NCBI RefSeq assembly: GCF_000427665.1
Contig: NZ_KE386572.1
Span: forward strand, 3,186,196 to 3,250,195
Source: Geminicoccus roseus DSM 18922
GTDB lineage: Bacteria; Pseudomonadota; Alphaproteobacteria; Geminicoccales; Geminicoccaceae
Direction of reading: 5' to 3'
Length of the DNA stretch: 64,000 nucleotides
The translations under genes were made by a program, and so were the position numbers. The notes beneath the pieces were generated by a model that was not told the DNA's origin, ran no database searches, and saw only the letters and a program-made list of their open reading frames with translations. Shown one piece after another: positions 5,653-61,491 of the stretch. Every line of letters begins with the position of its first letter. Within the stretch, counting starts at the first letter, position 1.

Positions 5653-5662
5653 ACAAAAAGAA

Positions 5663-5688
5663 AGCCCCTTCCTTGGCAGGAAGGGGCT
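5663..5688. terminator. Bidirectional intrinsic terminator between convergent operons
   Basis: A perfect 10-bp stem, AGCCCCTTCC / GGAAGGGGCT, with the loop TTGGCA. The left side is flanked by CAAAAAGAA, so transcripts from the minus strand end in a U-rich tract after the hairpin. It lies 10 bases after the enoyl-CoA hydratase stop and 27 bases beyond the stop of the converging gene, so it can serve both. Confidence 0.85.
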
Positions 5689-5715
5689 CTCGGTCAGGTC
5701 GCGACCGGTCTCAGG

Positions 5716-7080
5716 TCAGGCTTTGCAGCCGCTGAACTTGGCGGTGCCCTTGGCCTTGGCGAACTCCTTGGTCACCTGCCACCACGGCATGCCGCTGCGC
5801 CAGGTGTCCCAGCCGCGCTTGCCCTTCTTGGTGGTCATCGAGCCCCAGATCACCGTGCCGTCGGCCAGGCCGTGGACCGTCTCCAGCTGGGTCTTCCAGA
5901 AGCTGCCGGACATGTACTTCTGGCCGTCCGTGGAGTTCCAGTTGTGGATCTGCGGCCAGATGAAGGCGATCACCGGCTTGCCGTACTGGCGCGCCTCGGC
6001 GATGTTGCCCTTCGCGTACTTGATCCAGTCGCTCTTGTTGTCGAACATCGTGTAGAGCGACGGGAAGATCACGTCGACGTGCTTGACCAGCGGCGCCAGC
6101 TTATCGTTGGTCGCCTTCCAGGACTTCATCTTGCTGGAGCTGTTCTGGACCGGAGCGTACCAGTTCTTATCCGGAATCAGCAGGTAGTACCCGATCTTGG
6201 TCTTGCCGCCCTTGGCCCGGATCCCGTCGCGGATCGTCTTGGCCACGGTGATCAGCTTGTCCATCTCCTTGAACGTGTCCCAGTGTTCGATGTCGATGAC
6301 AGCGTACTGGTACTTGTTCTTCAGGATCTTCGGGATGACGACGTTCTTGAGCTGCGAGATGTTGGGCTTGGACTTGGATCCGCTGCCGAACAGCTCGTTG
6401 TCGTAGAAGATCTTGATGCCGCTCAGGCCGCAGCCGGCGAAGCTGGGCATCTTGTAGTAGCGGAAGCCGTTGTAGATCGGCTTGCGCCCGCCGCTCGAGG
6501 TGGACCCGGAGCTGCTGGAGCCGGAGTTGGACCCGGAGGAACTGCTGCCCGAGGACGAGCTGCCGCCGTTGTACTTCGCATCCACCGCCGCGGCGTAGGC
6601 CGCAACCCACGCGTCGGTCAGGTTGTGCTTGTCGAGATAGTACTTGTACTGGGTCGCCTTGAAGGCGTCGGTCTTGGCCTTCTCGCGCATGACCGTCATG
6701 TTGTAGCGCCAGCCGCTGTTCGCGATCGGCACGTTGCCCAGGTTGACGCTGCTGCTGGAGCCGGAGCTCGACCCGGAGGAGCTGCTGCCCGAGGACGAGC
6801 TGCCGCCGTTGTACTTCGCATCCACCGCGGCGGCGTAGGCGACGACCCAGGCATCGGTCAGGTTGTGCTTGTCGAGATAGTATTTGTACTGCTTGGCCTT
6901 GAACGAGTCGGTCTTGGCCTTCTCGCGCATGACCGTCATGTTGTAGCGCCAGCCACTATTCGCGATCGGCACGTTACCCAGGTTGACGCCTGCCAGGGCG
7001 CTGGTGGGCACGCCGGTGATCGCGATCGTACAGGCGAAATACGCGGCAGCACAAAGTGCCGCTGCTCTCAGTCGTGTCAT
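5716..7080 (-). CDS. Secreted protein with two GWRYN modules and a glycosidase-like C-terminal domain
   Basis: A 454-aa protein with a Sec signal peptide (MTRLRAAALCAAAYFACTIA..., likely cut after ...TSALA). Two copies of a roughly 48-residue module follow. The module pattern is GWRYNMTVMREKAKT-x-x-FKA-x-QYKYYLDKHNLTDAW, then an AYAAAVDAKY tail. Each is followed by a Ser/Gly linker. From about residue 205 the C-terminal domain begins with YNGFRYYKMPSFAGCGLSG. It contains AVIDIEHWD, KIGYYLLIPDKNWYAP and VDVIFPSLYT. The alternating beta/alpha look and the D-x-E pair resemble TIM-barrel glycosidases such as hyaluronidase-like enzymes, but I cannot name a family. A longer paralogue is the next gene upstream on the same strand. 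Confidence 0.75.
   Translation of the reverse strand: MTRLRAAALCAAAYFACTIAITGVPTSALAGVNLGNVPIANSGWRYNMTVMREKAKTDSFKAKQYKYYLDKHNLTDAWVVAYAAAVDAKYNGGSSSSGSSSSGSSSGSSSSVNLGNVPIANSGWRYNMTVMREKAKTDAFKATQYKYYLDKHNLTDAWVAAYAAAVDAKYNGGSSSSGSSSSGSNSGSSSSGSTSSGGRKPIYNGFRYYKMPSFAGCGLSGIKIFYDNELFGSGSKSKPNISQLKNVVIPKILKNKYQYAVIDIEHWDTFKEMDKLITVAKTIRDGIRAKGGKTKIGYYLLIPDKNWYAPVQNSSSKMKSWKATNDKLAPLVKHVDVIFPSLYTMFDNKSDWIKYAKGNIAEARQYGKPVIAFIWPQIHNWNSTDGQKYMSGSFWKTQLETVHGLADGTVIWGSMTTKKGKRGWDTWRSGMPWWQVTKEFAKAKGTAKFSGCKA
6510..6989 (-). repeat. 240-bp tandem duplication encoding the two GWRYN modules and their linkers
   Basis: Bases 6510-6749 and 6750-6989 are near-identical in register with a period of 240 bases, including the Ser/Gly linker codons and the module. 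Mismatches are few, so the duplication is recent or homogenised. Confidence 0.85.
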
Positions 7081-7566
7081 GATCCCCCCCAGGATCGAAT
7101 ATGTTCCGTTTCCGGACGTATTCCGCTCCGCAGGAGGAGGGACGCTGCATCATCACGCCTGAACGTGATGACCGACGTCTTCCATCACTCGTGGAGCTTG
7201 CACTGCCGGAAAACCACGATGGGGGATACACGATCATTCTGAATGGGGAAATGAGAGCTGGGACATTTCCTGGAGATGTAAATGAATCTTCACAACTGGC
7301 GAAGGAACTCATCCGAACTGGGCTAAAAATGAAATATGGTCCACTTCCCAGCGACGGACGGTGCCGGAAAGTGGTTCGATGACATCGTCTTCATGAAGGG
7401 TCCTGAGCTGGCTGAGAGGTCATCCAGGAGTGGATCGTCCTTGATGATCATCTTCCCATGACTGGTCGGTTTCATTGCTGATCCAGCCGCAGTCGATCTT
7501 GAGGACCCACAAAAAGGAAAGGCCCCCTCCGAGGAGGGGGCCCATGGTCATCACAAGAAGACCGGC
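7081..7566. other. Gap between the two paralogues; promoter region, no convincing gene
   Basis: This 486-base gap is AT-richer than its surroundings and should hold the promoter of the downstream minus-strand gene. A plus-strand frame of 93 codons (7101-7382) crosses it, but the frame has no Shine-Dalgarno site, mixed codon use and no recognisable family. The right end holds the terminator of the upstream gene. No further structure was found. Confidence 0.5.
7521..7542 (-). terminator. Intrinsic terminator of the larger GWRYN-module gene
   Basis: On the minus strand GGCCCCCTC and GAGGGGGCC form a 9-bp GC stem with a 4-base loop. It is followed by TTTCCTTTTTG, a T-rich tract. It lies 25 bases after the stop of the 720-aa gene. 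Confidence 0.85.
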
Positions 7567-9729
7567 TTAGTCGTCGCAGGTGCCGGTTTGCGGGACATCG
7601 GAGTACTGGGCGGCGAACTGCCGGGTGAAGCCCCACCACTCGCGGTCCTTGTTCCAGTTGTCCCAGCCCTTGGACTGGAAAGCGACGGAACCCCAGATCA
7701 CAAGATCATCGCCCAGGTTGTTCATTTCCTTGAGCTGGATCTCCCAGAACTTGATCGGCAGGTAGGTCGTGCCGATCCCCGGGGTGGTGTCGTGGTACTG
7801 CGGCCAGAGGACCGGGATCACCTTCTTCCCGTAGGTGCGGGCCTGCTCGATGTTGGTACGGGCATAGAGCAGCCAGTCGTCACGGTTCTCGTGCGGGGTG
7901 TAGAGCGACGGGAACACCACGTCGACTTCGGCTGCCAGGCGTCGCATCGCATCGTTGTTCTGGAGCCACTTGGTCCAGCGTTCCGGAGCATAGCTCTTGG
8001 TGGTCGGCGCCAGGTAGTTCCGCTCCGGCACCAGCATATAGTAGCCGAACTTCATCTTGGTGTTGCCTGCCGCCCGGACGCCGTCGCGCAGGGTGCGGAT
8101 CACCGTGATGAGCTTGTCCATCTCGGCGATCGGATCCCAGTGCTCGATGTCGATCATGACGTAGGTCACGTCGCGCTTGAGCAGGTCGGGGATCACCCTG
8201 GACTTCAGGCGGGCGATATCCGGCACGCTCTTCGACGAGCCGAACAACTCGTCGTCATAGAGGATCCGGATGTCCTCGCTCAGGCCGCAGTTGGCCAGGC
8301 TCGGCATGTTGTAGTAGCGAAAGCCGCGATAGATCGTGAAGTCGGTCTTCTTCGTAGCCACGATGTCCTTGCCGACATCGTCCGGATTGAATAGGGCCGC
8401 TACCGCCTCTGCGTAGGCGTCGACATAGGCGTCGGTCACCTTGTTCTTGTCGCGATAGTAGATGTACTGCTCGCGCTTGAACTCGCTGTACTCACCGAGC
8501 TTCTTTAGAACCGTCAGGTTGTAGCGCCAGCCGCTGTTCTTGACCTCGATCCCGTTGAGGATGGGATCCTGGACGAACGGCTTGTCGCCGCCCGTATCCA
8601 CCGGAGGAGGTGGCGGGGGAGGCGGAGGAGGTGGTGGCGGCGGCGGGGGAGGCGGTGATGGAGGCGTGCTCGTCCCGTACTTCGCGGCGACCGCCGCGGC
8701 ATACGCCACGACATAGGCGTCGGTGATGTTGTTCTTGTTGAGGTAGTAGGCGTACTGCTCGGCCTTGAAGGCGTCGGTCTTGGCCTGCTCGCGCATCACC
8801 GTCATGTTGTAGCGCCAGCCGCTGTCAGCGACCTCGATGCCTCTGAGGATCGGGTCCTGCACGAAGCCGCCGCCCGTATCCACCGGAGGAGGTGGCGGGG
8901 GAGGCGGAGGAGGTGGTGGCGGCGGCGGGGGAGGCGGTGATGGAGGCGTGCTCGTCCCGTATTTCGCGGCGACCGCCGCGGCATACGCCACGACATAGGC
9001 GTCGGTGATGTTGTTCTTGTTGAGGTAGTAGGCGTACTGCTCGGCCTTGAAGGCGTCGGTCTTGGCCTGCTCGCGCATGACCGTCATGTTGTAGCGCCAG
9101 CCGCTGTCAGCGACCTCGATGCCGTTGAGGATCGGGTCCTGCACGAAGCCGCCATTGCCGGAGGAGCCGCCGGAGCCGCTGTCCGTGCTGCCCCCGGTGG
9201 AGCCGCCGGTCGAGCCGCCCGTGCCGTATTTGGCAGCGAGTGCTGCAGCATAGGCGACGATGTAGGCGTCGGTCGTGTTCAGCTTGTTGAGGTAGTAGGC
9301 GTACTGCTCGGCCTTGAACGCGTCGGTCTTGGCCTGTTCGCGCATCACGGTCAGGTTGTAGCGCCAGCCGGTATCGACCACCTCGATACCGTTCAGGATC
9401 GGATCCTGCACAAAGCCGCCTGAGCCATTGGCCGGTGCCGACTGCGCCTCGTCGCCGCCGAACTTGGCATCGAGTGCCGCGGCATAAGCGACGATATACT
9501 CGTCGGTGACGTTCAGTTTCTTGAGGTAGTAGGCGTACTGCTCGGCCTTGAAGGTGTTGGTCTTCGCCTGCTCGCGCATCACCGTCATGTTGTAGCGCCA
9601 GCCGGTCTCCGCGATGACGACATCGCCCAGGTCGACCGCTGCAAAGGCTGCCGAAGGAGCAAGCGTGCTGAAGTACGACCCCGCAAGCAAAGCCGCGGCA
9701 GTCAATGCCACGCCTCTAGTACTGACCAT
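7567..9729 (-). CDS. Secreted protein with five GWRYN modules, polyproline linkers and a glycosidase-like domain
   Basis: A 720-aa paralogue of the gene at 5716-7080. A signal peptide (MVSTRGVALTAAALLAGSYF..., cut after ...SAAFA) is followed by five modules with the consensus GWRYN[ML]TVMREQAKT, FKAEQYAYYL, then TDAY-[IV]-VAYAAA. Linkers are Gly/Ser-rich between modules 2 and 3, and two long polyproline runs follow modules 3 and 4. Modules 2-5 are each preceded by FVQDPIL-x-GIEV. Module 5 is the most divergent (TVLKKLGEYSEFKREQ). The C-terminal domain from about residue 465 has GFRYYNMPSLANCGLS, YVMIDIEHWDP, FGYYMLVPERNYLAP and VDVVFPSLYT, the same motif order as the shorter paralogue. Exported and probably glycan-active is an inference; the module itself matches nothing I recognise. 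Confidence 0.75.
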   Translation of the reverse strand: MVSTRGVALTAAALLAGSYFSTLAPSAAFAAVDLGDVVIAETGWRYNMTVMREQAKTNTFKAEQYAYYLKKLNVTDEYIVAYAAALDAKFGGDEAQSAPANGSGGFVQDPILNGIEVVDTGWRYNLTVMREQAKTDAFKAEQYAYYLNKLNTTDAYIVAYAAALAAKYGTGGSTGGSTGGSTDSGSGGSSGNGGFVQDPILNGIEVADSGWRYNMTVMREQAKTDAFKAEQYAYYLNKNNITDAYVVAYAAAVAAKYGTSTPPSPPPPPPPPPPPPPPPPPPVDTGGGFVQDPILRGIEVADSGWRYNMTVMREQAKTDAFKAEQYAYYLNKNNITDAYVVAYAAAVAAKYGTSTPPSPPPPPPPPPPPPPPPPPPVDTGGDKPFVQDPILNGIEVKNSGWRYNLTVLKKLGEYSEFKREQYIYYRDKNKVTDAYVDAYAEAVAALFNPDDVGKDIVATKKTDFTIYRGFRYYNMPSLANCGLSEDIRILYDDELFGSSKSVPDIARLKSRVIPDLLKRDVTYVMIDIEHWDPIAEMDKLITVIRTLRDGVRAAGNTKMKFGYYMLVPERNYLAPTTKSYAPERWTKWLQNNDAMRRLAAEVDVVFPSLYTPHENRDDWLLYARTNIEQARTYGKKVIPVLWPQYHDTTPGIGTTYLPIKFWEIQLKEMNNLGDDLVIWGSVAFQSKGWDNWNKDREWWGFTRQFAAQYSDVPQTGTCDD
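8591..9154 (-). repeat. 282-bp tandem duplication of polyproline linker plus GWRYN module
   Basis: Units 8591-8872 and 8873-9154 are nearly identical, including the GGAGG-rich strand that encodes about 20 consecutive prolines. The offset is 282 bases (94 codons), so the duplication keeps frame and adds exactly one linker and one module. Confidence 0.9.
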
Positions 9730-46961: not shown

Positions 46962-47131
46962 GGCCGGGCGAGGAGGGCGGGGCGCATCCGGGCGACACGC
47001 CCGGCCGTCCTGCCCCGGGCATCCCTTGTGGACGCCTGGGCGACAGGATATGCGCTGCCCGCCGGGTGGTGGGCTGGTATAGGGTCGGTGGCGGCCGCCC
47101 AGGCATATCCGGTTTCTTTCAACGACGGACG

Positions 47132-48214
47132 ATGGACGACATGACCGAGCGTAACGGCAAAGTGGCCCTGATCACGGGGGCCACCGGCCAGGATGGCGCC
47201 TACCTGTCCCAGCTCTTGCTGGACAAGGGCTACATCGTCCACGGCATCAAGCGCCGCTCGTCCTCGTTCAACACCGGCCGGATCGAGCATCTCTACGAGG
47301 ACCCGCACGTCGAGGATCCGCGCTTCATCCTGCACTATGGCGACATGACGGATTCCACCAACCTGATCCGCGTGGTGCAGGAGACCCAGCCGGACGAGAT
47401 CTACAACCTAGCCGCCCAGTCGCACGTGCAGGTCAGCTTCGAGACCCCGGAATATACCGCCAATGCCGACGGGATCGGCACGCTGCGCCTGCTGGAAGCG
47501 ATCCGGCTGCTGGGCCTGACCCAGAAGACCCGGTTCTACCAGGCCTCGACCTCGGAACTGTACGGCAAGGTCCAGGAGGTCCCGCAGAGCGAGACGACGC
47601 CGTTCTATCCGCGCAGTCCCTATGCCGCGGCCAAGCTGTACGCCTACTGGATCGTGGTGAACTACCGCGAGGCCTACGGGATGCACGCCTCCAACGGCAT
47701 CCTGTTCAACCATGAGAGTCCGCTGCGCGGCGAGACCTTCGTCACCCGCAAGATCACCCGCGCGGTGGCCGCCATCCATCTGGGCCGGCAGAACAAGCTC
47801 TACCTCGGCAACATCGACGCCAAGCGCGACTGGGGCCATGCCCGGGAATATGTGCGCGGCATGTGGCTGATGCTGCAGCAGGACCAGGCGGACGACTATG
47901 TGCTGGCCACCGGCGAGACCCACACGGTGCGCTCGTTCGTGGAGAAGGCATTCGCCCATCTCGGCGTCACCCTGCAGTGGAAGGGCGAGGGGGTCGACGA
48001 GAAGGGGATCTGCGCCAAGAGCGGCAGGACTCTGGTCGAGATCGACCCGCGCTATTTCCGGCCGACCGAGGTCGACCTCCTGATCGGCAACCCGGAGAAG
48101 GCGCACCGCAAGCTCGGCTGGAAGCACGAGACCGACATGGACGCGCTGCTGGCCGAGATGGTCGACGAGGACCTGAAGGTGATGGCGTCGGCTCCGGTGA
48201 TGCGGGATGCCTGA
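47132..48214 (+). CDS. gmd: GDP-mannose 4,6-dehydratase
   Basis: A 360-aa short-chain dehydrogenase-fold protein. It has [19 protein letters not shown] (NAD(P) binding), [18 protein letters not shown], the catalytic Thr/Tyr regions [18 protein letters not shown] and [11 protein letters not shown], and [21 protein letters not shown]. It converts GDP-mannose to the 4-keto-6-deoxy sugar. The ATG at 47132 or the one at 47141 could be used. It overlaps fcl by 8 bases. Confidence 0.96.
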
Positions 48215-49157
48215 CATCCTGTTCCCGCTCGCGGGCAAGCGGGTCTGGGTCGCCGGCCATCGCGGCATGGTCGGCTCGGCGATCGTGCGGCGGCTGGCGG
48301 CGGAGGACTGCGAGATCCTCACGGCCGGGCGCGACAGCGTTGACCTGAAGGACCAGGCGCAGACGCGCGCCTGGATGGTGGCGAACCGGCCGGACGCGGT
48401 GTTCCTGGCGGCCGCCAAGGTCGGCGGGATCCTGGCGAACGACACGTTCCCGGCCGACTACCTCTACGACAACCTGATGATCGAGGCGAACATCATCGAG
48501 GCGGCGCACCGGGCGGAGGTGCAGAAGCTCCTGTTCCTCGGCTCGTCCTGCATCTATCCGAAGATGGCGCCGCAGCCGATCGCCGAGGACAGCCTGCTGA
48601 CCGGGCCGCTCGAGCCCACCAACGAATGGTACGCGATCGCCAAGATCGCCGGGATCAAGCTGGCGCAGGCCTATCGCAAGCAGCACGGCCGGGACTTCAT
48701 CTCGGCGATGCCGACCAACCTGTACGGGCCTGGCGACAATTTCGACCTGACCTCCAGCCACGTGCTGCCGGCCTTCATCCGCAAGGCGCATGAGGCCAAG
48801 CAGCAGGGGCAGGACGAGATCGTCATGTGGGGCAGCGGCACGCCCAAGCGCGAGTTCCTGCATGCCGACGACTGCGCCGACGCGCTGGTCCACCTGATGA
48901 AGACCTATTCCGGCCACGAGCATGTCAATGTCGGCTCCGGCTCGGACGTGACCATCCGCGAGCTCCTGGAGCTGGTCTGCCAGGTGGTGGGCTATGAGGG
49001 CCGGATCGTCCAGGACCGGAGCAAGCCGGACGGCACGCCGCGCAAGCTGATGAGCGCCGACCGGCTGCGGGCGCTGGGCTGGCAGCCGCGGATCGGCCTG
49101 GAGGACGGCGTGCGCGCCACCTATCGCTGGTTCCAGGAGAACCAGGTCAGGGGCTGA
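48207..49157 (+). CDS. fcl: GDP-L-fucose synthase
   Basis: A 316-aa epimerase/reductase with [36 protein letters not shown], the [14 protein letters not shown] catalytic Tyr-Lys pair and [13 protein letters not shown]. It turns the Gmd product into GDP-L-fucose for surface or secreted polysaccharides. It is translationally coupled to gmd. Confidence 0.96.
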
Positions 49158-49432
49158 GCGGCTCGCCTGCACGGGACCTGCCGAAGGCTGGAACATCGGC
49201 AGGTGCCTGGATCATGTCGGTCGAGCCGCTTTCGAGACCAAGGAGGCTGGTCGCCGACAGGGCCGGGTCATGGCCTGGCCCGATCCGGCCTGCGACCGAT
49301 GGAGCAGCTTTTCAGCTACAGTATATGCATTTTTAGTATATTTCTCGCATTACTGATGGCTTCTCGGAAATTTTTATAGAATGACTCATGCTCATAAATC
49401 GCTTTCACCGGCGGGAATGAGCATAATCCACC
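49158..49432. promoter_or_regulatory. AT-rich promoter region upstream of the secreted-protein/RTX run
   Basis: From about 49315 to 49400 the DNA is strongly AT-rich. It contains the direct repeat AGTATAT twice, spaced 15 bases apart centre to centre (near 49319 and 49334), followed by TTTTTATAGAAT. The base composition change marks a regulatory region for the genes starting at 49433. No known operator was recognised. Confidence 0.5.
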
Positions 49433-49705
49433 ATGTCATATCCAGTTCCGAATTCCAGAAGAGGCCAAGCGACCTTTCGTCGTCGCTCCATGTTGGCAAT
49501 GGCCGGCGCCATGGCGCTGGCGACCGCACTCCCCGCGTCGGTGCGGGCTGCCCGGCCGCCGGTCGACCTGATCCCCGGGTATGACGACCCGCCGGTCAAC
49601 GGCAACCTGCCGCCCTTGCCGCCGACCTGGACCAAGCGCGCGCCGCCCTGGCGGACGGGGCGGCGTCGGCGGCCTGGCCGGCCGCCTTCGGGAGGCCGGC
49701 CATGA
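49433..49705 (+). CDS. N-terminal part (signal peptide) of a probably frameshifted secreted protein
   Basis: A 90-codon frame. It starts MSYPVPNSRRGQATFRRRSM, with a twin-Arg-like charged region followed by the hydrophobic LAMAGAMALATALPASVRA, an export signal. A Pro-rich stretch with DLIPGYDDPPVNGNLP follows. After about base 49615 the translation turns into Arg/Pro/Gly-rich out-of-frame-looking sequence and stops at 49705, overlapping the next ATG. From 49609 the frame of the following gene reads as good protein. The two frames are best seen as one gene broken by a frameshift near 49585-49630. Confidence 0.6.
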   Translation: MSYPVPNSRRGQATFRRRSMLAMAGAMALATALPASVRAARPPVDLIPGYDDPPVNGNLPPLPPTWTKRAPPWRTGRRRRPGRPPSGGRP

Positions 49706-51366
49706 TCCTGCCCGAATACCGGGTGATCGGCTGCCCGATCTATGCCTCCACCCAGGCCAACATTCGCTGGCCGCGCGGCCACTACGTCTCCTTCCAGGCG
49801 CCGAAGGACGGCGTCATCTCCAGGTTCATGTGGCAGACCCAGGGTGCTCGGAAGAATTCCGACCCGACCGACGCGCATAGCGGCGGCAATTTCGGCTGCT
49901 ACCGGATCAAGTTCTTTCGCTGCAACGACTGGAGCGCGCCCAAGGGCGTGCAGCTGGCGGCCGGCGAGGTGACGCCGGGCGAACTCGGCTACTATCCCGG
50001 CCGGCAGGTCGGCGGCTTCGATGGGTTGAATCCGGCCGCTTCGCGCACCGGTGTCGCCGACAGTCCGGAACTGGTGGGCGGCCTGCATGTCCATTCCTGG
50101 ATGAACCGTGTCCAGCTCCTGGACGACGTGTATGTCTATTGCGGCACCGCCTTCGTCTATGTCGACGTGACCGCCAACGGGGCGCCCTGGCAGGTGACGG
50201 CCGGCGAGTGGATCATCGCGGAGATCGTCAACCTGGCGGCCTCGCCCACCGTCAATTTCTCGCTCGACAACAACGCCTTCTCGGCGGCGGCGGCCCATCC
50301 GGGCGAGCCCTTGTCCCTGTCGCCGCTCGACCGGCTCCTGGCGGTGCGCGAGTACCTGCCTTCCACCGAGCAGCCCAACACCAGCCTCAGCGCCGGCGGG
50401 GCGCGCGGCATGACGCCGTTCTTCATGCTGGGCTATGACGACGGGATCTGGCTGGGCCAGCCCTGGTACTATCGGGGCCGCTACACCGGCGGCCTGTCCA
50501 GCACCGGCCTGTTCGACCAGGATCCCGTCAATCCCGCAGCACCACTGCCGCCCACCGCGCAGCGCGGACCAGCACTGCTGGTGCATGGCCAGCAGCGTCT
50601 GCGCCAGGTTCTCACCCCGCCCGCGGATTTTGCCGGCGAGACGGTCGACGAGCTGTACCTGCATGCCTGGCGCTGGACGAGCCTGATCGGCTACCAGCAG
50701 GACAAGCGCCTGGGCGTGCGGATCCTGCGGGTCACCGGGGTGGCTGGCCGCAACCTCACCATGGGCCTGCGCCAGGTCTGGCCGCCGCCGGTCTCCTCGG
50801 GCGGCGACGTGTTCCGGGTGGGCGGTGCGGGCCCGTTCAAGGCGTTCCCGGCCGGCAGCTTCGCGGCGTTCGGCCGGGACGTGGTGCCGGGCAGAACGCT
50901 CACCATCACGCCGTCCAACCTGACCTCCTCCACCTCGCCGACCCTCACCCAGTTCGAGCAGGTGGTGCCGGTCATGCCGTATGGCCGGCTGGAGATCAGC
51001 CCGCCGCTGCCGGTCTCCAAGACCTACCGCTACATCATCGAGATCATGGCCGAGGACGGGGCGGCCTATGCGATGCAGCTGCAGAAGAACCCGGCGCGCT
51101 ACCTCAACCTCTACCGCAAGAAGTCCGACGGCACGTTCGACACCAGCCAGGGGCGCGCCCTGATGCCGGACGGCAGCCGCCGCCCGGAGATCACGATGCC
51201 GCAGGTCTGGGCGTGCAACCCGAACGCGGTGCCCTCGGCCAGCGAGGACGACGCCCTCAATTCCGGGCGCTACTACAATGCCTGCGGCAAGCTCTATGCC
51301 ACCAGCCAGCCCTGGAAAGAGATCAACGACCACATGCTGCCCGTCAGCCTGATGCCGACGGCATGA
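49702..51366 (+). CDS. Large secreted hypothetical protein (body of the frameshifted gene)
   Basis: A 554-aa protein with no family I can name. It is rich in aromatic residues and beta-type sequence, with MWQTQGARKNSDPTDAHSGG, GCYRIKFFRCNDWS, YVYCGTAFVYVDVTANGAPW, FMLGYDDGIWLGQPWYYRG and LHAWRWTSLIGYQQDKRLGV. The annotated ATG overlaps the preceding stop. The frame is open and coding-like back to about 49609 (ALAADLDQARAALADG then AASAAWPAAFGRPAM), so this ATG may not be the true start. Export would rely on the signal in the upstream frame. It is followed 18 bases later by an RTX gene, suggesting one operon. Confidence 0.6.
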   Translation: MILPEYRVIGCPIYASTQANIRWPRGHYVSFQAPKDGVISRFMWQTQGARKNSDPTDAHSGGNFGCYRIKFFRCNDWSAPKGVQLAAGEVTPGELGYYPGRQVGGFDGLNPAASRTGVADSPELVGGLHVHSWMNRVQLLDDVYVYCGTAFVYVDVTANGAPWQVTAGEWIIAEIVNLAASPTVNFSLDNNAFSAAAAHPGEPLSLSPLDRLLAVREYLPSTEQPNTSLSAGGARGMTPFFMLGYDDGIWLGQPWYYRGRYTGGLSSTGLFDQDPVNPAAPLPPTAQRGPALLVHGQQRLRQVLTPPADFAGETVDELYLHAWRWTSLIGYQQDKRLGVRILRVTGVAGRNLTMGLRQVWPPPVSSGGDVFRVGGAGPFKAFPAGSFAAFGRDVVPGRTLTITPSNLTSSTSPTLTQFEQVVPVMPYGRLEISPPLPVSKTYRYIIEIMAEDGAAYAMQLQKNPARYLNLYRKKSDGTFDTSQGRALMPDGSRRPEITMPQVWACNPNAVPSASEDDALNSGRYYNACGKLYATSQPWKEINDHMLPVSLMPTA

Positions 51367-51384
51367 CCCGAACGGAGACGCCTC

Positions 51385-52260
51385 ATGGCAATCATTGAAG
51401 GCACGATCGGCGACGACCGGCTTGCCGGCACCGAAGAGGCGGACACCATCCTGGGCAGGGCCGGCAGCGACCTGGTCCAGGGCTGGGGAGGCGATGACAC
51501 GCTGGGCCTGGGCGACGGGAACGACCGAGCCTTCGGCGGGTCCGGCAACGACACGCTGATGGGCGGCGAGGGCGACGACCAGCTGGATGGCGAGGACGGC
51601 GACGATTCGCTGAGCGGCGGTGCCGGCAACGACCTCCTGTCCGGCGGCGCCGGCGCCGACCGGCTGCAGGGCCATGCCGGTGACGACGACCTGCGCGGCG
51701 GCCTGGGCAACGATCACCTGAACGGCGGCGACGGCGACGACTATCTCGATGCCGGCGGCGGCAGCAACATCCTGTATGGCGGGACGGGCAACGACACCCT
51801 GTCGATCTACAGCGACGACCGTGTCTCGGCCGGCGAGGGCGACGACCTGGTGCAGGTCGGCGGCTACGACAGCCTGAACGCCCGGATCTCGCTGGGGGCG
51901 GGGGCCGACACCATCACCATGGAGTATTCCGGCGGTAGCCAGGAATTTGCCGGCGGCGGGCGGACAGAGGTCAGCGACTTCCGGCATGGCGAGGACCGGA
52001 TCGGCGACCTGACCTTCATCCTCACCGACGACGGCGGCACCGAGCGGATCGGCTTCGACGCGCTGGACAGCAACGCGGACGGCAGCATCGATGGGCTGGA
52101 TGCCGGGGTGACGGTCGAGGGTGGCGGGCTGACGATCGACCTGGCGCCGGCGCTGGTGGAGCTGGCGTCGGAGGGACGGCCAGGCTTCGAGGTGGCCGAT
52201 CCAATGATCCTCCGGCTGGCGGGCATCACGGCGCTTTCGGGCGCCAACTTCGTGGGATGA
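51385..52260 (+). CDS. RTX calcium-binding protein, 291 aa, type I secretion candidate
   Basis: A 291-aa protein with about a dozen GGxGxDxLx nonapeptides at residues 30-145 (LSGGAGNDLLSGGAGADRLQGHAGDDDLRG). A C-terminal region follows that carries an EF-hand-like loop, DSNADGSIDGLD. It ends with RLAGITALSGANFVG, similar to the end of the next gene. There is no N-terminal signal; export by a type I system using the C-terminus is the normal route. No type I secretion genes are in the window. The ATG has GGAG upstream. Confidence 0.85.
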   Translation: MAIIEGTIGDDRLAGTEEADTILGRAGSDLVQGWGGDDTLGLGDGNDRAFGGSGNDTLMGGEGDDQLDGEDGDDSLSGGAGNDLLSGGAGADRLQGHAGDDDLRGGLGNDHLNGGDGDDYLDAGGGSNILYGGTGNDTLSIYSDDRVSAGEGDDLVQVGGYDSLNARISLGAGADTITMEYSGGSQEFAGGGRTEVSDFRHGEDRIGDLTFILTDDGGTERIGFDALDSNADGSIDGLDAGVTVEGGGLTIDLAPALVELASEGRPGFEVADPMILRLAGITALSGANFVG

Positions 52261-52428
52261 GGGCCGGCCGGGTTCATGGGCTGGCGCGGGGAGGCCTGCG
52301 TCCCGGCCCATGAACGGGCAGGCGCGTTCAGGTCGGGCAAATTCGGCGAACCATCCCGGGCATGATGAGGCAGGGCAGCCGTCATCATCGCCGGGAGGGC
52401 GCCATAACCAATTCAGAAGGGCGAACCA

Positions 52429-55400
52429 ATGGCGGAAATCCTGGGCACTGCCGGCGCGGATGTCATCATGCCGACGGCATCCGATCCTGCGCTCAGGACG
52501 ACTGGCGGGGATGACGTTGTCCATGGACTGGGTGGCGACGACTTTGTCGATGGCGGCGATGGCGACGATGCTCTGGACGGCGGCGACGGTGATGATGTGC
52601 TGTATGGTGGGGCTGGGGACGACTCCGCGAGCTACGCCGAAGCAACAAGCGGGGTGACGGTCGACCTTGCGGTGCCGGCGGCGCAGGAGACGGGCGCTGC
52701 TGGGCGGGACAGGTTGGTCAGCGTCGAGGGGCTGATCGGGTCGAGCTATAACGACACGCTCGCCGGCGACGCCAGCCTGAACAGGTTGGTGGGCGGCGCT
52801 GGAGACGATGTGTTGAGCGGGAATGGCGGCAACGACGAGTTGGATGGAGGTCTTGGCACGGACACAGCCACCTATATGTCCGCTCCAACTGCAGTGATAG
52901 TTGATCTGAGATTGAATACTACCCAAGAGACTGGTGGTGCTGGGCGGAACAAGCTGACCAGCATTGAAGGGCTGATTGGCTCTGTTTACCATGACGTGCT
53001 CTATGGCGATGGTAAAAGTAATTCTCTGCAGGGTGATGCGGGCGATGACGTGCTCAGTGGCGGCGCCGGCAGAGATGTATTGGACGGTGGTGCTGGCAGC
53101 GACACGCTTGATGGAGGTAGTGGCTTTGATACCGCAACCTATGCGCTCGCTCCAGGCGCGGTGACGGTTGATCTGTCGCTGGCTGGTGTTCAGGCGACTG
53201 GTGGTGCGGGCGATGACACGCTGATCAGCATTGAACGGCTGATCGGCTCGGATTTCGCTGACGTACTGAAGGGTGACGCCGGAACCGAAGCGTTGCTCGG
53301 CGGCTCTGGCGACGATGTGCTGGAAGGTGGGGCTGGCGACGACGCGATGGACGGTGGTGCGGGTAGCGACATCGTCTCCTATGCGAGCGCGACCTCGGGT
53401 ATAACAGTCGACCTGGCGTTGACCGGGATCGTGCAGAGGACCGGGGGCGCCGGCGAGGACCGGGTGTTCAGCATTGAAGGACTGGTCGGTTCGGACTTCG
53501 ACGATACGCTCAAGGGTAGCAGCAGCGCCAATTCGCTCAGGGGCGGCGCTGGCGACGACGTGTTGGACGGTGGTGCCGGCAATGACGTGCTCGATGGTGG
53601 CGATGGCACCGACACGGCGAGCTATGCCGGGGCGATCTCCGGCGTGACGGTGGAACTGGGCCTGGCGACTGTGCAGGCGACCGGTGGGGCGGGCACCGAC
53701 ACGCTGTTGAACGTCGAGCGGCTGGTCGGCTCGGATTTCGCTGACGTGCTGAAGGGAAGCGTCGACAGTGATGTGCTGGTAGGCGGTGATGGTGATGATG
53801 TGCTGGAAGGTGGGGCCGGCAACGATACTATGGACGGTGGTGCGGGCAGCGACATCGTTTCCTATGCGAGTGCGACTTCGAGTGTCACAGTTGATCTGGC
53901 GTTGACCGGGATCGTGCAGAGGACCGGGGGCGCCGGCGAGGACCGGGTGTTCAGCATCGAAGGACTGGTCGGTTCGGACTTCGACGATACGCTCAAGGGT
54001 AGCAGCGGCACTGATTTGTTGAGCGGCAGCGCCGGAGGGGATCTTCTGCAGGGTGATGCGGGCGATGACGTGCTCAGTGGCGGCGCCGGCAGAGATGTAT
54101 TGGACGGTGGTGCTGGCAGCGACACGCTTGATGGAGGTAGTGGCTTTGATACCGCAACCTATGCGCTCGCTCCAGGCGCGGTGACGGTTGATCTGTCGCT
54201 GGCTGGTGTTCAGGCGACTGGTGGTGCGGGCGATGACACGCTGATCAGCATTGAACGGCTGATCGGCTCGGATTTCGCTGACGTACTGAAGGGTGACGCC
54301 GGAACCGAAGCGTTGCTCGGCGGCTCTGGCGACGATGTGCTGGAAGGTGGGGCTGGCGACGACGCGATGGACGGTGGTGCGGGTAGCGACATCGTCTCCT
54401 ATGCGAGCGCGACCTCGGGTATAACAGTCGACCTGGCGTTGACCGGGATCGTGCAGAGGACCGGGGGCGCCGGCGAGGACCGGGTGTTCAGCATTGAAGG
54501 ACTGGTCGGTTCGGACTTCGACGATACGCTCAAGGGTAGCAGCAGCGCCAATTCGCTCAGGGGCGGCGCTGGCGACGACGTGTTGGACGGTGGTACCGGC
54601 AATGACGTGCTCGATGGTGGCGATGGCACCGACACGGCGAGCTATGCCGGGGCGATCTCCGGCGTGACGGTGGAACTGGGCCTGGCGACTGCGCAGGCGA
54701 CCGGTGGGGCGGGCACCGACACGCTGTTGAACGTCGAGCGGCTGGTCGGCTCCGGCTTTGCCGACATGCTGACGGGTAGCGCTGGCGACGATCAGTTGCT
54801 GGGCGGGTCGGGCGACGACGTGCTGGATGGTGGCGCTGGAGCCGACTTTCTGAACGGTGGCGATGGCACCGACACGGCGAGCTATGCCGGGGCGATCTCC
54901 GGCGTGACGGTGGAACTGGGCCTGGCGACTGCGCAGGCGACCGGTGGGGCGGGCACCGACACGCTGTTGAACGTCGAGCGGCTGGTCGGCTCCGGCTTTG
55001 CCGACATGCTGACGGGTAGCGCTGGCGACGATGTGCTGCGCGGCGAGGCGGGTGACGACGTGCTGGACGGTGGTGCCGGCAACGATGTGCTGGACGGTGG
55101 CGATGGTATCGACACGGCGAGCTATGCCGGCGCGATCTCCGGCGTGACGGTGGAACTGGGCTTGGCGACTGCGCAGGCGACCGGTGGGGCGGGCACCGAC
55201 ACGCTGTTGAACGTCGAGCGGCTGGTCGGCTCCGGCTTTGCCGACATGCTGACGGGTAGCGCTGGCGACGATGTGCTGCGTGGCGAGGCGGGTGACGACG
55301 TGCTGGACGGTGGTGCCGGCAACGATGTGCTGGACGGTGGCGATGGCACCGACACGGCGAGCTATGCCGGGGCGATCTCCGGCGTGACGGTGGAACTGGG

Positions 55401-56427
55401 CCTGGCGACTGCGCAGGCGACCGGTGGGGCGGGCACCGACACGCTGTTGAACGTCGAGCGGCTGGTCGGCTCCGGCTTTGCCGACATGCTGACGGGTAGC
55501 GCTGGCGACGATCAGTTGCTGGGCGGGTCGGGCGACGACGTGCTGGATGGTGGCGCTGGAGCCGACTTTCTGAACGGGAGCCAGGATCGCGACCTGATCT
55601 GGGGCGACGGCGGCAATGACGCTTTGCATGGTGAGCAGGGTGAGGATGAACTCCACGGAGGCGCGGGGAACGACACACTTGATGGTGGTGAGGGTTCCGA
55701 CCTGCTGATGGGCGATGCCGGTGATGATGTGCTGACGGGCGGCGCTGGCTCGGACACCCTTGAAGGCGGCGATGGTTACGACACCGCCGACTATTCCGGC
55801 GAGGGGGGCGGCATTCTGGCATGGCTGGTGAATGGTGCGGGAGGTGCTGCGGATGATACCCTGGCGACCATCGAGCGGGTGGTCGGCACCTCGGGCGACG
55901 ACGAGTTCTATGCCTTCGACCTGTTCAACGAGTCCGGCCAGTACACCATCAGCACCGATGCGGTCGCCTTCGATGGGCAGGACGGCAACGACCAGCTTGT
56001 CGGCGGGAACGGCGATGACCACTTGTCCGGCGGCGAGGGGGACGACGTCATCCAGGGCGGGGCTGGCGATGATGACATCGAAACCGGCGCAGGCTTCGAT
56101 ATCCTCTTTGCCAACCTCGACGTCGCCAGCGGCGAGTTCATCGGCCAGGACATCATTCAGGACTTCGACCTGGCGAGCGACGGGCTGAGCCTCAGCGGCT
56201 TTACCCAGCAGGGCCTGCAGGTCTATGCCTCCGAAATGTTTGCGCGGCTCGACACCAACCAGGATCTGGTCGTGACCAGCGCCGATGACGCCGTCTCCCT
56301 CTCGACCGCAAACGAAGCCGATGCCCTCGTCATCGATGTCGGCCAGACGCTCGGCCATGGAAGCGGCCTGCACACGGTGACGCTGGTCGGCGTGCAGGCG
56401 CTCTTTTCCGACAACTTCTACGGCTGA
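52429..56427 (+). CDS. Giant RTX protein, 1332 aa, with about a dozen repeated 80-residue units
   Basis: The protein has no N-terminal signal. Nearly the whole chain consists of units joining GGxGxD calcium-binding nonapeptides (DDVLDGGAGNDVLDGGDGTD) to a spacer of the type TASYAGAISGVTVELGLATA, then GGAGTDTLLNVERLVGSGFAD. After residue 1050 the units vary, and the C-terminus has QDIIQDFDLASDGLSLSGF, an EF-hand-like loop DTNQDLVVTSADD and the terminal TLVGVQALFSDNFYG, a likely type I secretion signal. Function is probably structural or adhesive at the cell surface, which is an inference. Codons in the middle (53020-54100) are slightly less GC-rich than in the last third. Confidence 0.85.
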   Translation: MAEILGTAGADVIMPTASDPALRTTGGDDVVHGLGGDDFVDGGDGDDALDGGDGDDVLYGGAGDDSASYAEATSGVTVDLAVPAAQETGAAGRDRLVSVEGLIGSSYNDTLAGDASLNRLVGGAGDDVLSGNGGNDELDGGLGTDTATYMSAPTAVIVDLRLNTTQETGGAGRNKLTSIEGLIGSVYHDVLYGDGKSNSLQGDAGDDVLSGGAGRDVLDGGAGSDTLDGGSGFDTATYALAPGAVTVDLSLAGVQATGGAGDDTLISIERLIGSDFADVLKGDAGTEALLGGSGDDVLEGGAGDDAMDGGAGSDIVSYASATSGITVDLALTGIVQRTGGAGEDRVFSIEGLVGSDFDDTLKGSSSANSLRGGAGDDVLDGGAGNDVLDGGDGTDTASYAGAISGVTVELGLATVQATGGAGTDTLLNVERLVGSDFADVLKGSVDSDVLVGGDGDDVLEGGAGNDTMDGGAGSDIVSYASATSSVTVDLALTGIVQRTGGAGEDRVFSIEGLVGSDFDDTLKGSSGTDLLSGSAGGDLLQGDAGDDVLSGGAGRDVLDGGAGSDTLDGGSGFDTATYALAPGAVTVDLSLAGVQATGGAGDDTLISIERLIGSDFADVLKGDAGTEALLGGSGDDVLEGGAGDDAMDGGAGSDIVSYASATSGITVDLALTGIVQRTGGAGEDRVFSIEGLVGSDFDDTLKGSSSANSLRGGAGDDVLDGGTGNDVLDGGDGTDTASYAGAISGVTVELGLATAQATGGAGTDTLLNVERLVGSGFADMLTGSAGDDQLLGGSGDDVLDGGAGADFLNGGDGTDTASYAGAISGVTVELGLATAQATGGAGTDTLLNVERLVGSGFADMLTGSAGDDVLRGEAGDDVLDGGAGNDVLDGGDGIDTASYAGAISGVTVELGLATAQATGGAGTDTLLNVERLVGSGFADMLTGSAGDDVLRGEAGDDVLDGGAGNDVLDGGDGTDTASYAGAISGVTVELGLATAQATGGAGTDTLLNVERLVGSGFADMLTGSAGDDQLLGGSGDDVLDGGAGADFLNGSQDRDLIWGDGGNDALHGEQGEDELHGGAGNDTLDGGEGSDLLMGDAGDDVLTGGAGSDTLEGGDGYDTADYSGEGGGILAWLVNGAGGAADDTLATIERVVGTSGDDEFYAFDLFNESGQYTISTDAVAFDGQDGNDQLVGGNGDDHLSGGEGDDVIQGGAGDDDIETGAGFDILFANLDVASGEFIGQDIIQDFDLASDGLSLSGFTQQGLQVYASEMFARLDTNQDLVVTSADDAVSLSTANEADALVIDVGQTLGHGSGLHTVTLVGVQALFSDNFYG
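53032..54752 (+). repeat. Two near-identical 700-bp blocks, 1020 bases apart, inside the giant RTX gene
   Basis: Bases about 53032-53732 recur at 54052-54752 with two differences that I could see (53574 G versus A, and 53672 T versus C). The start (GGTGATGCGGGCGATGACG) and the point of divergence after CTGGTCGGCTC are sharp. The block is in frame. Confidence 0.9.
54630..55590 (+). repeat. Four tandem 240-bp units in the giant RTX gene
   Basis: The segment starting GGCGTGACGGTGGAACTGGG occurs at 54661, 54901, 55141 and 55381, exactly 240 bases apart, with almost no changes between units. Each unit encodes 80 residues. Confidence 0.92.
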
Positions 56428-56438
56428 AGGCAAGGCGG

Positions 56439-57689
56439 TCATCCGGCACGGGCAACGGACGGGGGAAGGTCGCGCAGCCAGGCGGGAGGACCCTTGCCGT
56501 CGACGCCAAAGCGCAGGAGGTAGGCTTCGGCCGCCTCGCGGTAAGGCAGGTCGAAGCGCCTGGCGATCTGGCTGCGCAGATGGGCCAGCTCCCGCAGGGC
56601 CTGGCCGGCGGGCGTGTCGGGCTCGGGTTCGTTCGTGTGATCGTTGGCGGCCGGCGGCGTAACGGCTCGCATCCTGTTGCTCATGGCCGCGCTCGAATGG
56701 CCCCCAGAACCCGGGGCGGCCCCTGGACCATGCTTGCCACCGGACCCGGAGCCGGCCGCATTTCCTGCCCGATCCGATTCGTCCGCTCCGTCACGCGAGT
56801 GTGCAGCATCGCGTGCTGGGCCGCTGGGAAGCTCGGGTTCGTTTGTGCGAACGGAGGCGGAGGAGAGGTCGGACCCAGATGGTGAAGGGCCGGGTTCGGT
56901 GCATGAATCCGGGCCAAGTGGCAACGGAAGGATCGGCTCGGGTTCGTTCGTGCAAAATGGCCCGGGTTCGTTCGGCTCATCCGAACTGTCGATCTCGGGT
57001 TCGCCCGGTACTTCAGGCGAGCGGCGGTTCTTGGGTTCGTTTGTGGAAACGGGATGGACCTGCTGCCCGGGTTCGTTCGGAGAAGCAGATCGCCGCGATC
57101 CGGCCTCGTCCGGCCGATCCGGCCCGCAGCCATTCTCGGGTTCGTTCGTGAAATTGAGTGGCGTGGCGGGATCGCCGTCGCTCGGGACAAACGGGTTCTC
57201 TGCCAGCGGGTCGGCCTTGCCGGAGCGGAGCTGGGTCAGGTTGCGGAGAGCTCGGGCGAACGCGTTGTTGGCTTCCGCCAGATAGCGCAGGGCGGTGGGC
57301 AGGGAGGCGCGCCGCTTGTCCTGGTCGTGGACGAGGGTCATCTGCAGCTGCAGATGCGGCTCGTCCGGCGCCCCTGGCGGGGTGGCGCACCAGAACGCCC
57401 GCTCCAGCTGCTCGGCGCGCTCGGCCCGCCAGAGGGCGGTGACCATCCGGGCGCACAGGGCGGCTTCCAGGGGCGAGGCGGGCTGGAAATGGTCGTGAAT
57501 CGAATCCCGCAGCATCTCGTAGTGGGGCAGGTCTTCGTCGCCGATCACGCTGTGGATGGAGGAGCGCAGGCCGAAGGTGCGGGCATTGATTGCCGCGCGC
57601 GCCTTGCCCTCGGGCGTGACGGGGCCATGGCTGCGCCGCCCGTTCCGGCGGGACGCCTCGACCTGGGCAGGGGAAGGATCGCGGGGCAT
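56439..57689 (-). CDS. Hypothetical protein with repeated TNEPE peptides
   Basis: The product is about 416 aa. The N-terminal part (VEASRRNGRRSHGPVTPEGKARAAINARTFGL) matches a widespread uncharacterised bacterial family that begins with R-R-N-x-x-x-S-x-G-P-x-T-P-E-G-K. Helical sequence follows to about residue 170. The middle is a low-complexity region with nine or so TNEPE/NEPG/GEPE peptides, and the C-terminus has a helical segment (LRELAHLRSQIARRFDLPYREAAEAYLLRFGVDGKG). The start at 57689 is preceded by GGAG; 57701 is also possible. It converges with the RTX gene and is divergent from the next gene. Function unknown. Confidence 0.7.
   Translation of the reverse strand: MPRDPSPAQVEASRRNGRRSHGPVTPEGKARAAINARTFGLRSSIHSVIGDEDLPHYEMLRDSIHDHFQPASPLEAALCARMVTALWRAERAEQLERAFWCATPPGAPDEPHLQLQMTLVHDQDKRRASLPTALRYLAEANNAFARALRNLTQLRSGKADPLAENPFVPSDGDPATPLNFTNEPENGCGPDRPDEAGSRRSASPNEPGQQVHPVSTNEPKNRRSPEVPGEPEIDSSDEPNEPGPFCTNEPEPILPLPLGPDSCTEPGPSPSGSDLSSASVRTNEPELPSGPARDAAHSRDGADESDRAGNAAGSGSGGKHGPGAAPGSGGHSSAAMSNRMRAVTPPAANDHTNEPEPDTPAGQALRELAHLRSQIARRFDLPYREAAEAYLLRFGVDGKGPPAWLRDLPPSVARAG
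56622..57150 (-). repeat. Cluster of eight short DNA repeats encoding TNEPE
   Basis: The plus-strand motif CTCGGGTTCGTTCGTG or close variants start near 56622, 56832, 56937, 56961, 56993, 57030, 57066 and 57135. Spacing is irregular but always in frame, so the antisense reading is T-N-E-P-(E/G/K). One further copy lies in the intergenic region near 15183. Confidence 0.8.
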
Positions 57690-60252: not shown

Positions 60253-61491
60253 CTAACTTCGCTCCAACGCCATACCAGAGGAGCCCGCTTCAGTCATTCC
60301 GATTAGCGGATCAACGCTATTATAGATCGCGACGGTTTGTTTCGCAATCGAGCCCCATTCGTAATCTTTAAGCAGATATGTCCAATCTACATAGGGTGCT
60401 CCTTCTATATCATTAGCAAATACTTGCTTTAGACGGCGTGCGATCGCAGAAGGGGAACCAGTCTCTACATAACAGTGACTGGGCAACCCGACATTTCGAT
60501 TAGCATCTATGTCACTCGCTACCACCGGCCGACAGTACGACATCGCTTCAAGCAACGCTATAGGAAGGCCTTCATGGCTCGAAGGAAGAACGAACACACC
60601 GGCGTGACTGAAAATCTCCGCCAGAGGCAGTCCATTTAAGAAGCCGGTCATTACCACACCTGGGGTTGCCATCGCAGCTTCTGATACTCTCTGGCTATAG
60701 GAACTCTTATGATCCGCTGCGCCAACCAAAACTAACCGCAAATCAGGTCTTCCAAGCTCTCTAAATGCATCAATTAAGTCCATATGACGTTTCTCAGGAA
60801 CCAACCGGCTAACGTTCAGGATATACTTCCCAGGCTCTAATCCGAATTGGTCGAGCGCTCTAGAGGTTGGTACCCACCGACCTGATTCAACACCATTCGG
60901 GATATATGTGAAGGCTTTTTGATATTTGGTAGTGAGCTCAGCGGCCAATGAACGCGACACTGCAATACGGGCATTAGCGGTATAAGCTGCCGACATCTCA
61001 CCAATTCGCAAGATGAACTTGGCCAAACGGCCCCATTTCTCACGCTTATAATCTTCGCCATGATGAGTTGCGACGACGCTCAAACCCAGGAGCTTCGCCA
61101 GAGGTGTAACAAGCGAAGGCCCGATGGCATGTATATGTAAGATGCGAGGTCGAATAACCGCAGCGTAAAGAACCGCGAGAATAGAATGAAACAGCGCCTC
61201 TGTACTCGGACCCTGGAAAGAAGGCAACGAAGTCACTTTAAATGAATTAGTCATTATCGGAAGATCAACCGAACTATAAGGCTTGCGCACCACAACATTT
61301 GTGTCAACTCCGAGCCTACTGATCTCCTGCGCCAAATTGCCTACATGAGCTTCGACACCACCCTGTCCACCACCGATACTTCTAAGGCCGATCATCATAA
61401 CGTCGGGCCGTGTCCGCTGAAAAAGGGATTGTAGCGTCCTCCGCGTCCCCAAGCCTGATAAATTCCGCACCGTCGTGTTCCTTTCAGCCAT
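60253..61491 (-). CDS. Glycosyltransferase family 4, surface polysaccharide
   Basis: The product is about 412 aa with a GT-B fold. The N-terminal part has MMIGLRSIGGGQGGVEAHVGNLAQEI, and LSVVATHHGEDYKREKWGR sits in the middle. The C-terminal donor site has ILNVSRLVPEKRHMDLIDAF, then HAGVFVLPSSHEGLPIALLEAMSYCRPVVASDI with the E-x7-E motif. The ATG at 61491 is preferred over a GTG at 61506. The gene is visibly AT-richer than the DNA to the left and belongs to the low-GC block that runs to the window end. Acceptor and linkage cannot be predicted. Confidence 0.88.
   Translation of the reverse strand: MAERNTTVRNLSGLGTRRTLQSLFQRTRPDVMMIGLRSIGGGQGGVEAHVGNLAQEISRLGVDTNVVVRKPYSSVDLPIMTNSFKVTSLPSFQGPSTEALFHSILAVLYAAVIRPRILHIHAIGPSLVTPLAKLLGLSVVATHHGEDYKREKWGRLAKFILRIGEMSAAYTANARIAVSRSLAAELTTKYQKAFTYIPNGVESGRWVPTSRALDQFGLEPGKYILNVSRLVPEKRHMDLIDAFRELGRPDLRLVLVGAADHKSSYSQRVSEAAMATPGVVMTGFLNGLPLAEIFSHAGVFVLPSSHEGLPIALLEAMSYCRPVVASDIDANRNVGLPSHCYVETGSPSAIARRLKQVFANDIEGAPYVDWTYLLKDYEWGSIAKQTVAIYNSVDPLIGMTEAGSSGMALERS

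What the first reader, a model, noticed from the sequence alone, without database searches (positions are those of the whole stretch)
5716..9729. Two adjacent secreted proteins built from an unnamed GWRYN module and a glycosidase-like domain
Both proteins share a signal peptide, a roughly 48-residue module (2 copies versus 5) and the same C-terminal domain with an IDIEHWD pair. The module has very strongly kept aromatic and charged positions (GWRYN, TVMRE, FKAEQY, YYL, TDAY, AYAAA) and I cannot assign it to a known fold or binding family. The arrangement of binding-like modules, low-complexity linkers and a TIM-barrel-like domain is that of a carbohydrate-active enzyme, so the module could be a new glycan- or surface-binding domain.
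Basis: partly seen in the sequence, partly recalled or inferred. Interest (0 to 1): 0.8.

Follow-up and report, generated by a model that had tools for sequence, protein, structure and literature searches.

The report
Bacterial relatives of animal hyaluronidases
Two neighbouring genes of the bacterium Geminicoccus roseus encode secreted sugar-cutting-type enzymes that are distant relatives of animal and venom hyaluronidases, carried on a chain of small three-helix modules found so far only in this genus, which points to a little-noticed bacterial branch of this enzyme family tied to slime (exopolysaccharide) biology.

Summary
Window 5716-7080(-) and 7567-9729(-) encode two secreted proteins with 2 and 5 copies of one module, low-complexity linkers, and a shared ~255-residue C-terminal domain. 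The module is ~62 residues, not 48.

The C-terminal domain can be assigned: it is a remote member of the hyaluronidase family GH56. Profiles of it hit bee-venom hyaluronidase at E 2e-11 to 9e-13. The predicted barrel (pLDDT 93) ranks six GH56 structures first (Z 16-19; next family 12.8). All five bee-venom active-site residues align (D111, E113, Y184, Y227, W301).

The genome is Geminicoccus roseus DSM 18922, with 11 such domains. Relatives occur in Nitrospira, Planctomycetota, Gammaproteobacteria and Bacteroidota; in 15 of 29 non-Geminicoccus loci the gene lies near an exosortase gene, in exopolysaccharide clusters where examined. I therefore read it as an extracellular exopolysaccharide glycosidase acting at N-acetylhexosamine units (inferred; substrate unknown).

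The module is a three-helix bundle (pLDDT 95) with no sequence or fold match, found only in Geminicoccus, and fused once to an FG-GAP-like protein. Surface or matrix attachment is plausible but untested. Verdict: new variant of a known kind.

The parts
5716..7080 (-). gene A, 454 aa: signal segment, 2 modules, Ser/Gly linkers, GH56-like domain
   Evidence: ORF and translation; no family hit for the whole protein
6991..7080 (-). gene A signal segment, residues 1-30
   Evidence: read by eye
6805..6990 (-). gene A module 1, residues 31-92
   Evidence: module profile 127 bits; three-helix model pLDDT 95 of this copy
6565..6750 (-). gene A module 2, residues 111-172
   Evidence: module profile 126 bits
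5716..6468 (-). gene A GH56-like domain, from residue 205; D263, E265, Y299, Y343, W412 align with bee-venom D111, E113, Y184, Y227, W301
7567..9729 (-). gene B, 720 aa: signal segment, 5 modules, Gly/Ser and poly-Pro linkers, GH56-like domain
   Evidence: ORF and translation
9640..9729 (-). gene B signal segment, residues 1-30
   Evidence: read by eye
9454..9639 (-). gene B module 1
   Evidence: 119 bits
9220..9408 (-). gene B module 2
   Evidence: 125 bits
8953..9141 (-). gene B module 3
   Evidence: 132 bits; in a 282-nt repeat 99% identical to the next (8868-9149)
8671..8859 (-). gene B module 4
   Evidence: 131 bits; repeat unit 8586-8867
8383..8571 (-). gene B module 5, the most divergent one, next to the enzyme domain
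   Evidence: 116 bits
7567..8325 (-). gene B GH56-like domain, from residue 469; D527, E529, Y564, Y610, W679 at the active-site positions
5660..5691 (-). terminator-like hairpin after gene A
   Evidence: consensus match only
7520..7543 (-). terminator-like hairpin after gene B
   Evidence: consensus match only

Best explanation
Both proteins are exported glycosidases of a bacterial branch of the hyaluronidase family GH56. Shown by comparison: the C-terminal domain is homologous to GH56, is predicted to have its barrel, and keeps its active-site residues. Inferred from GH56: the Glu of IDIEHW gives a proton to the glycosidic oxygen, the Asp and two aromatic residues hold the 2-acetamido group of an N-acetylhexosamine, and that group acts as the nucleophile (substrate-assisted, retaining mechanism); the substrate should therefore be a polysaccharide with N-acetylhexosamine. 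Inferred from gene context in other bacteria: the natural substrate is more likely a bacterial exopolysaccharide (own or of neighbours) than animal hyaluronan. Inferred and weakest: the tandem three-helix modules, on flexible Ser/Gly or poly-Pro linkers, hold the enzyme at the cell surface or in the matrix, and their number changes by tandem duplication.
For: Homology: PDB profile hits only to GH56 at E below 0.002 (1fcq 1.9e-11 and 8.8e-13, 2atm, 2pe4, 9jub); Pfam PF01630 hit by 24 of 45 members, over its cut-off in the closest paralogue (25.9 vs 23.2) and a Nitrospira relative (30.0). Fold: pLDDT 93, pTM 0.91; Foldseek's first four hits are GH56; VIA Z 18.7 for bee-venom hyaluronidase over 225 residues, six GH56 entries at 16.1-18.7, next family 12.8. 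Active site: E conserved in 42 of 42, W in 44 of 45, Y227-equivalent in 39 of 43, D in 38 of 42 (N in 4); roles in PMC4619011, mechanism in PMC12254123. Context: exosortase on the same strand in 15 of 29 non-Geminicoccus loci, with glycosyltransferases, a WecA-like transferase, PrsT or Wzy-like genes in the loci examined. Glycosidases inside exopolysaccharide clusters are a known arrangement (abstract of PMC9075953). Module: fused to two unlike secreted domains, varies in number between orthologues.
Against: No activity has been measured. The two window domains themselves score just under Pfam's cut-off or lower (22.9 vs 23.2 for gene A; gene B no hit). The bacterial domain is ~255 residues against ~330 and lacks the long segment that follows the DxE motif in GH56. 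G. roseus has no exosortase and its copies do not lie in polysaccharide clusters (by eye), so the exopolysaccharide reading is carried over from other genera; 12 of the 15 exosortase loci are Nitrospira and so not independent. Nothing tests the module's role.
Confidence: 0.6

Rival explanations
1. Secreted scavenging enzyme: it cuts foreign glycosaminoglycan-like polymers (hyaluronan, chondroitin or the sheaths of other organisms) for food, and the module binds the target polymer.
For: Full GH56 active site, including Tyr at the position linked to hyaluronan specificity. Eleven copies in one genome fit a degrading lifestyle. The window copies are not in a polysaccharide synthesis cluster.
Against: The two other Geminicoccus species come from desert soil crusts (PMC9659566), where hyaluronan is an unlikely food (inference). 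Relatives in Nitrospira, an autotroph by general knowledge, sit in synthesis clusters.
Confidence: 0.2
2. The barrel is a non-cutting glycan-binding or matrix protein (pseudo-enzyme), and the whole protein is an adhesin.
For: Multi-module architecture with long linkers; four paralogues have Asn instead of the catalytic-site Asp; GH56 mutants at that Asp lose most activity (own knowledge).
Against: The proton-donor Glu is kept in every aligned sequence across several phyla, and the other four residues in nearly all; genes A and B keep the complete set.
Confidence: 0.12
3. The module is only a spacer or oligomerisation unit that sets the reach of the enzyme and binds nothing.
For: Copy number differs between orthologues (5 in G. 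roseus, 4 in G. harenae) and grows by recent tandem duplication; linkers are low complexity; the close paralogue L029 has no module.
Against: Mean pairwise identity of 61% over 22 copies, with near-invariant G-W-R-Y-N, Tyr, Thr-Asp and Ala-Tyr positions, is more than a spacer needs, although recent duplication explains part of it. The module is also joined to an FG-GAP-like protein.
Confidence: 0.35
4. The enzyme cuts peptidoglycan (GlcNAc-MurNAc), as a wall-remodelling hydrolase.
For: Substrate-assisted hexosaminidases can act on peptidoglycan; PgaB and spore-cortex SleL barrels appear among lower VIA rows (Z about 12).
Against: Those rows are at the level of many unrelated barrels; gene context in other bacteria is exopolysaccharide, not cell-wall genes.
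Confidence: 0.08

Closest known systems
GH56 hyaluronidases (bee-venom Api m 2, PDB 1fcq; wasp Ves v 2, 2atm; human HYAL1, 2pe4; PH-20, 9jub); Pfam PF01630
   Same: Barrel fold and all five bee-venom active-site residues; significant profile similarity
   Different: About 20% identity; ~75 residues shorter, without the long segment after the DxE motif; bacterial, multi-copy, with N-terminal module arrays; substrate unknown
Exopolysaccharide-cluster glycosidases such as PslG of Pseudomonas aeruginosa (PMC9075953)
   Same: Works-like comparison only: a glycosidase encoded in an exopolysaccharide cluster, as seen for the non-Geminicoccus relatives
   Different: Other glycoside hydrolase families (own knowledge); the Geminicoccus copies stand outside such clusters
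Bacterial hyaluronan-degrading enzymes of PL8, PL16, GH84 (review PMC11669647)
   Same: Bacterial secreted enzymes for hexosamine-containing polymers
   Different: Different families and, for the PL families, a different (lyase) mechanism; the review assigns GH56 to mammals and venoms and lists no bacterial GH56
Small three-helix surface modules of bacterial proteins (general class, e.g. protein A domains, FIVAR; own knowledge)
   Same: Size, three helices, tandem repetition on flexible linkers
   Different: No sequence or fold match was found

Membership tests
GH56 / PF01630 (C-terminal domain) | Significant sequence-profile similarity to characterised GH56 enzymes | tested here: met
   1fcq E 1.9e-11 and 8.8e-13; human enzymes E 4e-4 and 1.5e-3
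GH56 / PF01630 (C-terminal domain) | Score over Pfam's curated cut-off | tested here: inconclusive
   Gene A 22.9 vs 23.2 bits, gene B none, but closest paralogue 25.9 and Nitrospira relative 30.0
GH56 / PF01630 (C-terminal domain) | GH56 barrel fold | tested here: met
   Predicted model pLDDT 93; six GH56 entries at Z 16.1-18.7 ahead of all others
GH56 / PF01630 (C-terminal domain) | Catalytic D-x-E pair and the Tyr184, Tyr227, Trp301 equivalents | tested here: met
   PDB alignments and counts; both window domains have all five
GH56 / PF01630 (C-terminal domain) | Hydrolysis of hyaluronan or chondroitin by a retaining mechanism | not testable with these tools
   needs an enzyme assay
GH56 / PF01630 (C-terminal domain) | Disulfide that ties the barrel ends (bee-venom Cys22-Cys313, own knowledge) | tested here: inconclusive
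   Geminicoccus domains have two invariant Cys near the domain ends (C19 and C254), absent in most other bacterial members; equivalence to the bee pair was not established
Named Pfam or NCBIfam family (module) | Sequence match over a curated cut-off | tested here: not met
   22 copies scanned in Pfam, best E 0.02, none over cut-off; NCBIfam only weak
Known carbohydrate- or surface-binding module (module) | Shared fold with a solved module | tested here: inconclusive
   Foldseek best E 4.8; VIA best Z 2.8; small bundles can be missed
Known carbohydrate- or surface-binding module (module) | Binding to a glycan or surface | not testable with these tools
   needs a binding assay

The most novel reading that the evidence does not exclude
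The hyaluronidase family has an old, diverse bacterial branch whose job is to process exopolysaccharide in exosortase-linked clusters; Geminicoccus has multiplied it to 11 copies and joined part of it to a genus-specific surface-binding module. This would be a new bacterial enzyme (sub)family, possibly with a new substrate, and bears on where the animal enzymes came from.
Probability: 0.4. Interest if true: 0.7.

Novelty: new variant of a known kind. Interest (0 to 1): 0.5.

Why it matters
GH56 is described as the family of mammalian and venom hyaluronidases; the papers searched name no characterised bacterial member. A bacterial branch that keeps the active site and lies next to exosortase and polysaccharide genes offers small, testable enzymes that could reveal a new substrate for the family, tools to cut hexosamine-containing biofilm polymers, and a handle on exosortase-linked exopolysaccharide clusters. 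The module is a candidate new attachment domain.

Tried and rejected
Module as VapD-like (NCBIfam E 2e-4 over 38 residues of gene B): rejected, 21.7 bits against a cut-off of 100, and the module model is all-helical. Module outside Geminicoccus: of 31 family genomes only the two Geminicoccus; 385 class genomes gave only weak hits, the best-looking one inside an acyl-CoA synthetase-like protein, so chance; nothing in viral contigs, and nothing for the whole gene A protein in plasmids. First genome-contig scan with the full-length gene B protein found nothing; the domain alignment worked. TAF4, Secretin_N_2 and SurA matches lie in low-complexity linkers or below cut-off. SGNH-esterase PDB matches (6njc, 7pzg) are E 0.01 or worse and do not fit the fold. 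VIA listed no known binding module for the module model, which does not exclude one. dbCAN, HHpred and the CAZy list were not on hand.
Full report
Observation. Gene A (5716-7080, minus) has 2 and gene B (7567-9729, minus) 5 copies of one module, then a shared domain with one IDIEHWD each. The true unit is about 62 residues: an extended lead of about 12 residues, then three helices. The array of gene B grew recently: modules 3 and 4 with their poly-proline linkers are a 282-nt tandem duplication at 99% identity. Each gene has its own terminator-like hairpin. The neighbours are fatty-acid catabolism-type genes on one side (by eye) and a putative neutral zinc metallopeptidase on the other, with no obvious link.

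Where it is. The genome has five contigs, the largest of 5,421,495 bases. The published figures for Geminicoccus roseus DSM 18922 are 5.7 Mb, 5 scaffolds and N50 5,421,495 (PMC9659566), so the window is from that strain. The two genes lie side by side in G. harenae too, with 4 and 2 modules (L038); in the G. flavidas draft the gene B relative is broken by stops.

The family in the genome. G. roseus carries 11 copies of the C-terminal domain: the two here, two further module-bearing ones (L030, L031), one close copy without modules (L029), and six more distant ones (L033, two in L034, L035, L036, L037). Some distant ones begin with twin-arginine-like leaders (by eye). In a tree the module-bearing copies plus L029 form one clade with 100/98 support. 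The module also occurs twice in a protein without the enzyme domain, L032, whose remainder resembles FG-GAP repeats slightly below Pfam's cut-off. In all there are 13 module copies in five proteins.

What the domain is. Single sequences find nothing. A profile of 18 relatives finds bee-venom and wasp hyaluronidase in the PDB (E 1.9e-11 and 1.5e-6); a profile of 45 also finds human HYAL1 and PH-20. Pfam's hyaluronidase family is hit by 24 of 45 members, over the cut-off for the closest paralogue and for a Nitrospira relative. The predicted structure is confident and ranks six GH56 entries ahead of every other barrel; the lowest of them stands 3.3 Z units above the next family. In the PDB alignments bee D111 and E113 fall on the D and E of IDIEHW, Y184 on the second Y of GYY, Y227 on the Y of FPSLY and W301 on the W of VIWGS (numbering counted along the printed chain). 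PMC4619011 gives their roles: E113 is the proton donor; D111, Y184 and W301 position the acetamido group; Y227 is linked to hyaluronan specificity. Across the family E is kept everywhere, D is D or N. Membership of the GH56 superfamily is well supported; hyaluronidase activity is not shown.

Who else has it. A scan of GTDB genomes gave 48 loci: other Geminicoccus, many Nitrospira, Planctomycetota, Gammaproteobacteria, Chitinophagaceae, and weak hits in Streptomyces. It is rare in the phylum of the window (1 of 397 other genomes). In 15 of the 29 non-Geminicoccus loci with a recognisable domain gene an exosortase gene follows on the same strand within 0.05 to 1.9 kb. In the Nitrospira locus examined it is of the VPLPA-specific XrtD type and stands with glycosyltransferases, a WecA-like transferase and a PrsT protein; a gammaproteobacterial locus has exosortase, Wzy-like and glycosyltransferase genes. 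Twelve of the 15 are Nitrospira and so not independent; three are from proteobacterial lineages that branch apart in the tree. This places the bacterial branch in exopolysaccharide biology. G. roseus itself has no exosortase and its copies stand alone, so for the window genes this is a carried-over inference.

How it probably works. Exported by the Sec route (signal read by eye), the enzyme would cut an N-acetylhexosamine-containing polysaccharide by the substrate-assisted retaining mechanism of GH56 (mechanism from PMC12254123). The modules on flexible linkers would hold it at the surface or in the matrix. The first half rests on conserved chemistry, the second on architecture only.

The module. 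It has no curated family, no PDB sequence match and no convincing fold match, and was found only in Geminicoccus. A genus-restricted three-helix bundle can be new without being deep, because small helical bundles arise easily. Its fusion to two unlike secreted domains is the best hint that it is a portable attachment unit.

Verdict. The finding is real. The glycosidase guess was right and can be made precise (GH56-like); the module remains unassigned. The unexpected part is the bacterial GH56 branch and its exosortase neighbourhood. Whether CAZy already lists such bacterial sequences could not be checked here.

Noticed in passing
L032:2483-4402 minus (G000:C5 near 2.953 Mb): 639-aa secreted protein with two of the same modules but an FG-GAP-like (beta-propeller type) remainder instead of the enzyme domain; shows that the module is portable.
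   Followed up: partly
L041, L042, L044-L046, L051, L052, L054-L058, L062, L068, L077: GH56-like genes followed by an exosortase gene (XrtD/VPLPA type in L041) in Nitrospira and proteobacterial exopolysaccharide clusters.
   Followed up: partly
L026, L027, L036:3658-4767, L037:3717-4970: In these Geminicoccus paralogues the Asp of the D-x-E pair is Asn while the Glu is kept, so they may be altered or weak enzymes.
   Followed up: no
L035 (contig C3, 60,811 bases), 974-1978 minus: One distant copy lies on a small, probably extrachromosomal contig with lower third-position GC than the chromosome.
   Followed up: no
L072:1122-2443 (G. flavidas draft): The gene B relative is split over several frames by stops; either a decaying gene or draft-assembly errors.
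   Followed up: no
window 51385-52260 and 52429-56427, plus: Two genes rich in RTX calcium-binding repeats (19 matched stretches in the 1332-aa one); the 2345-aa minus-strand ORF 49405-56442 over them is probably a shadow frame.
   Followed up: partly
window 47066-49157, plus, and 60253-61506, minus: GDP-mannose 4,6-dehydratase, a gene that reads like a GDP-fucose synthase (by eye), and a group 1 glycosyltransferase: surface-polysaccharide genes some 40-50 kb from the finding.
   Followed up: no
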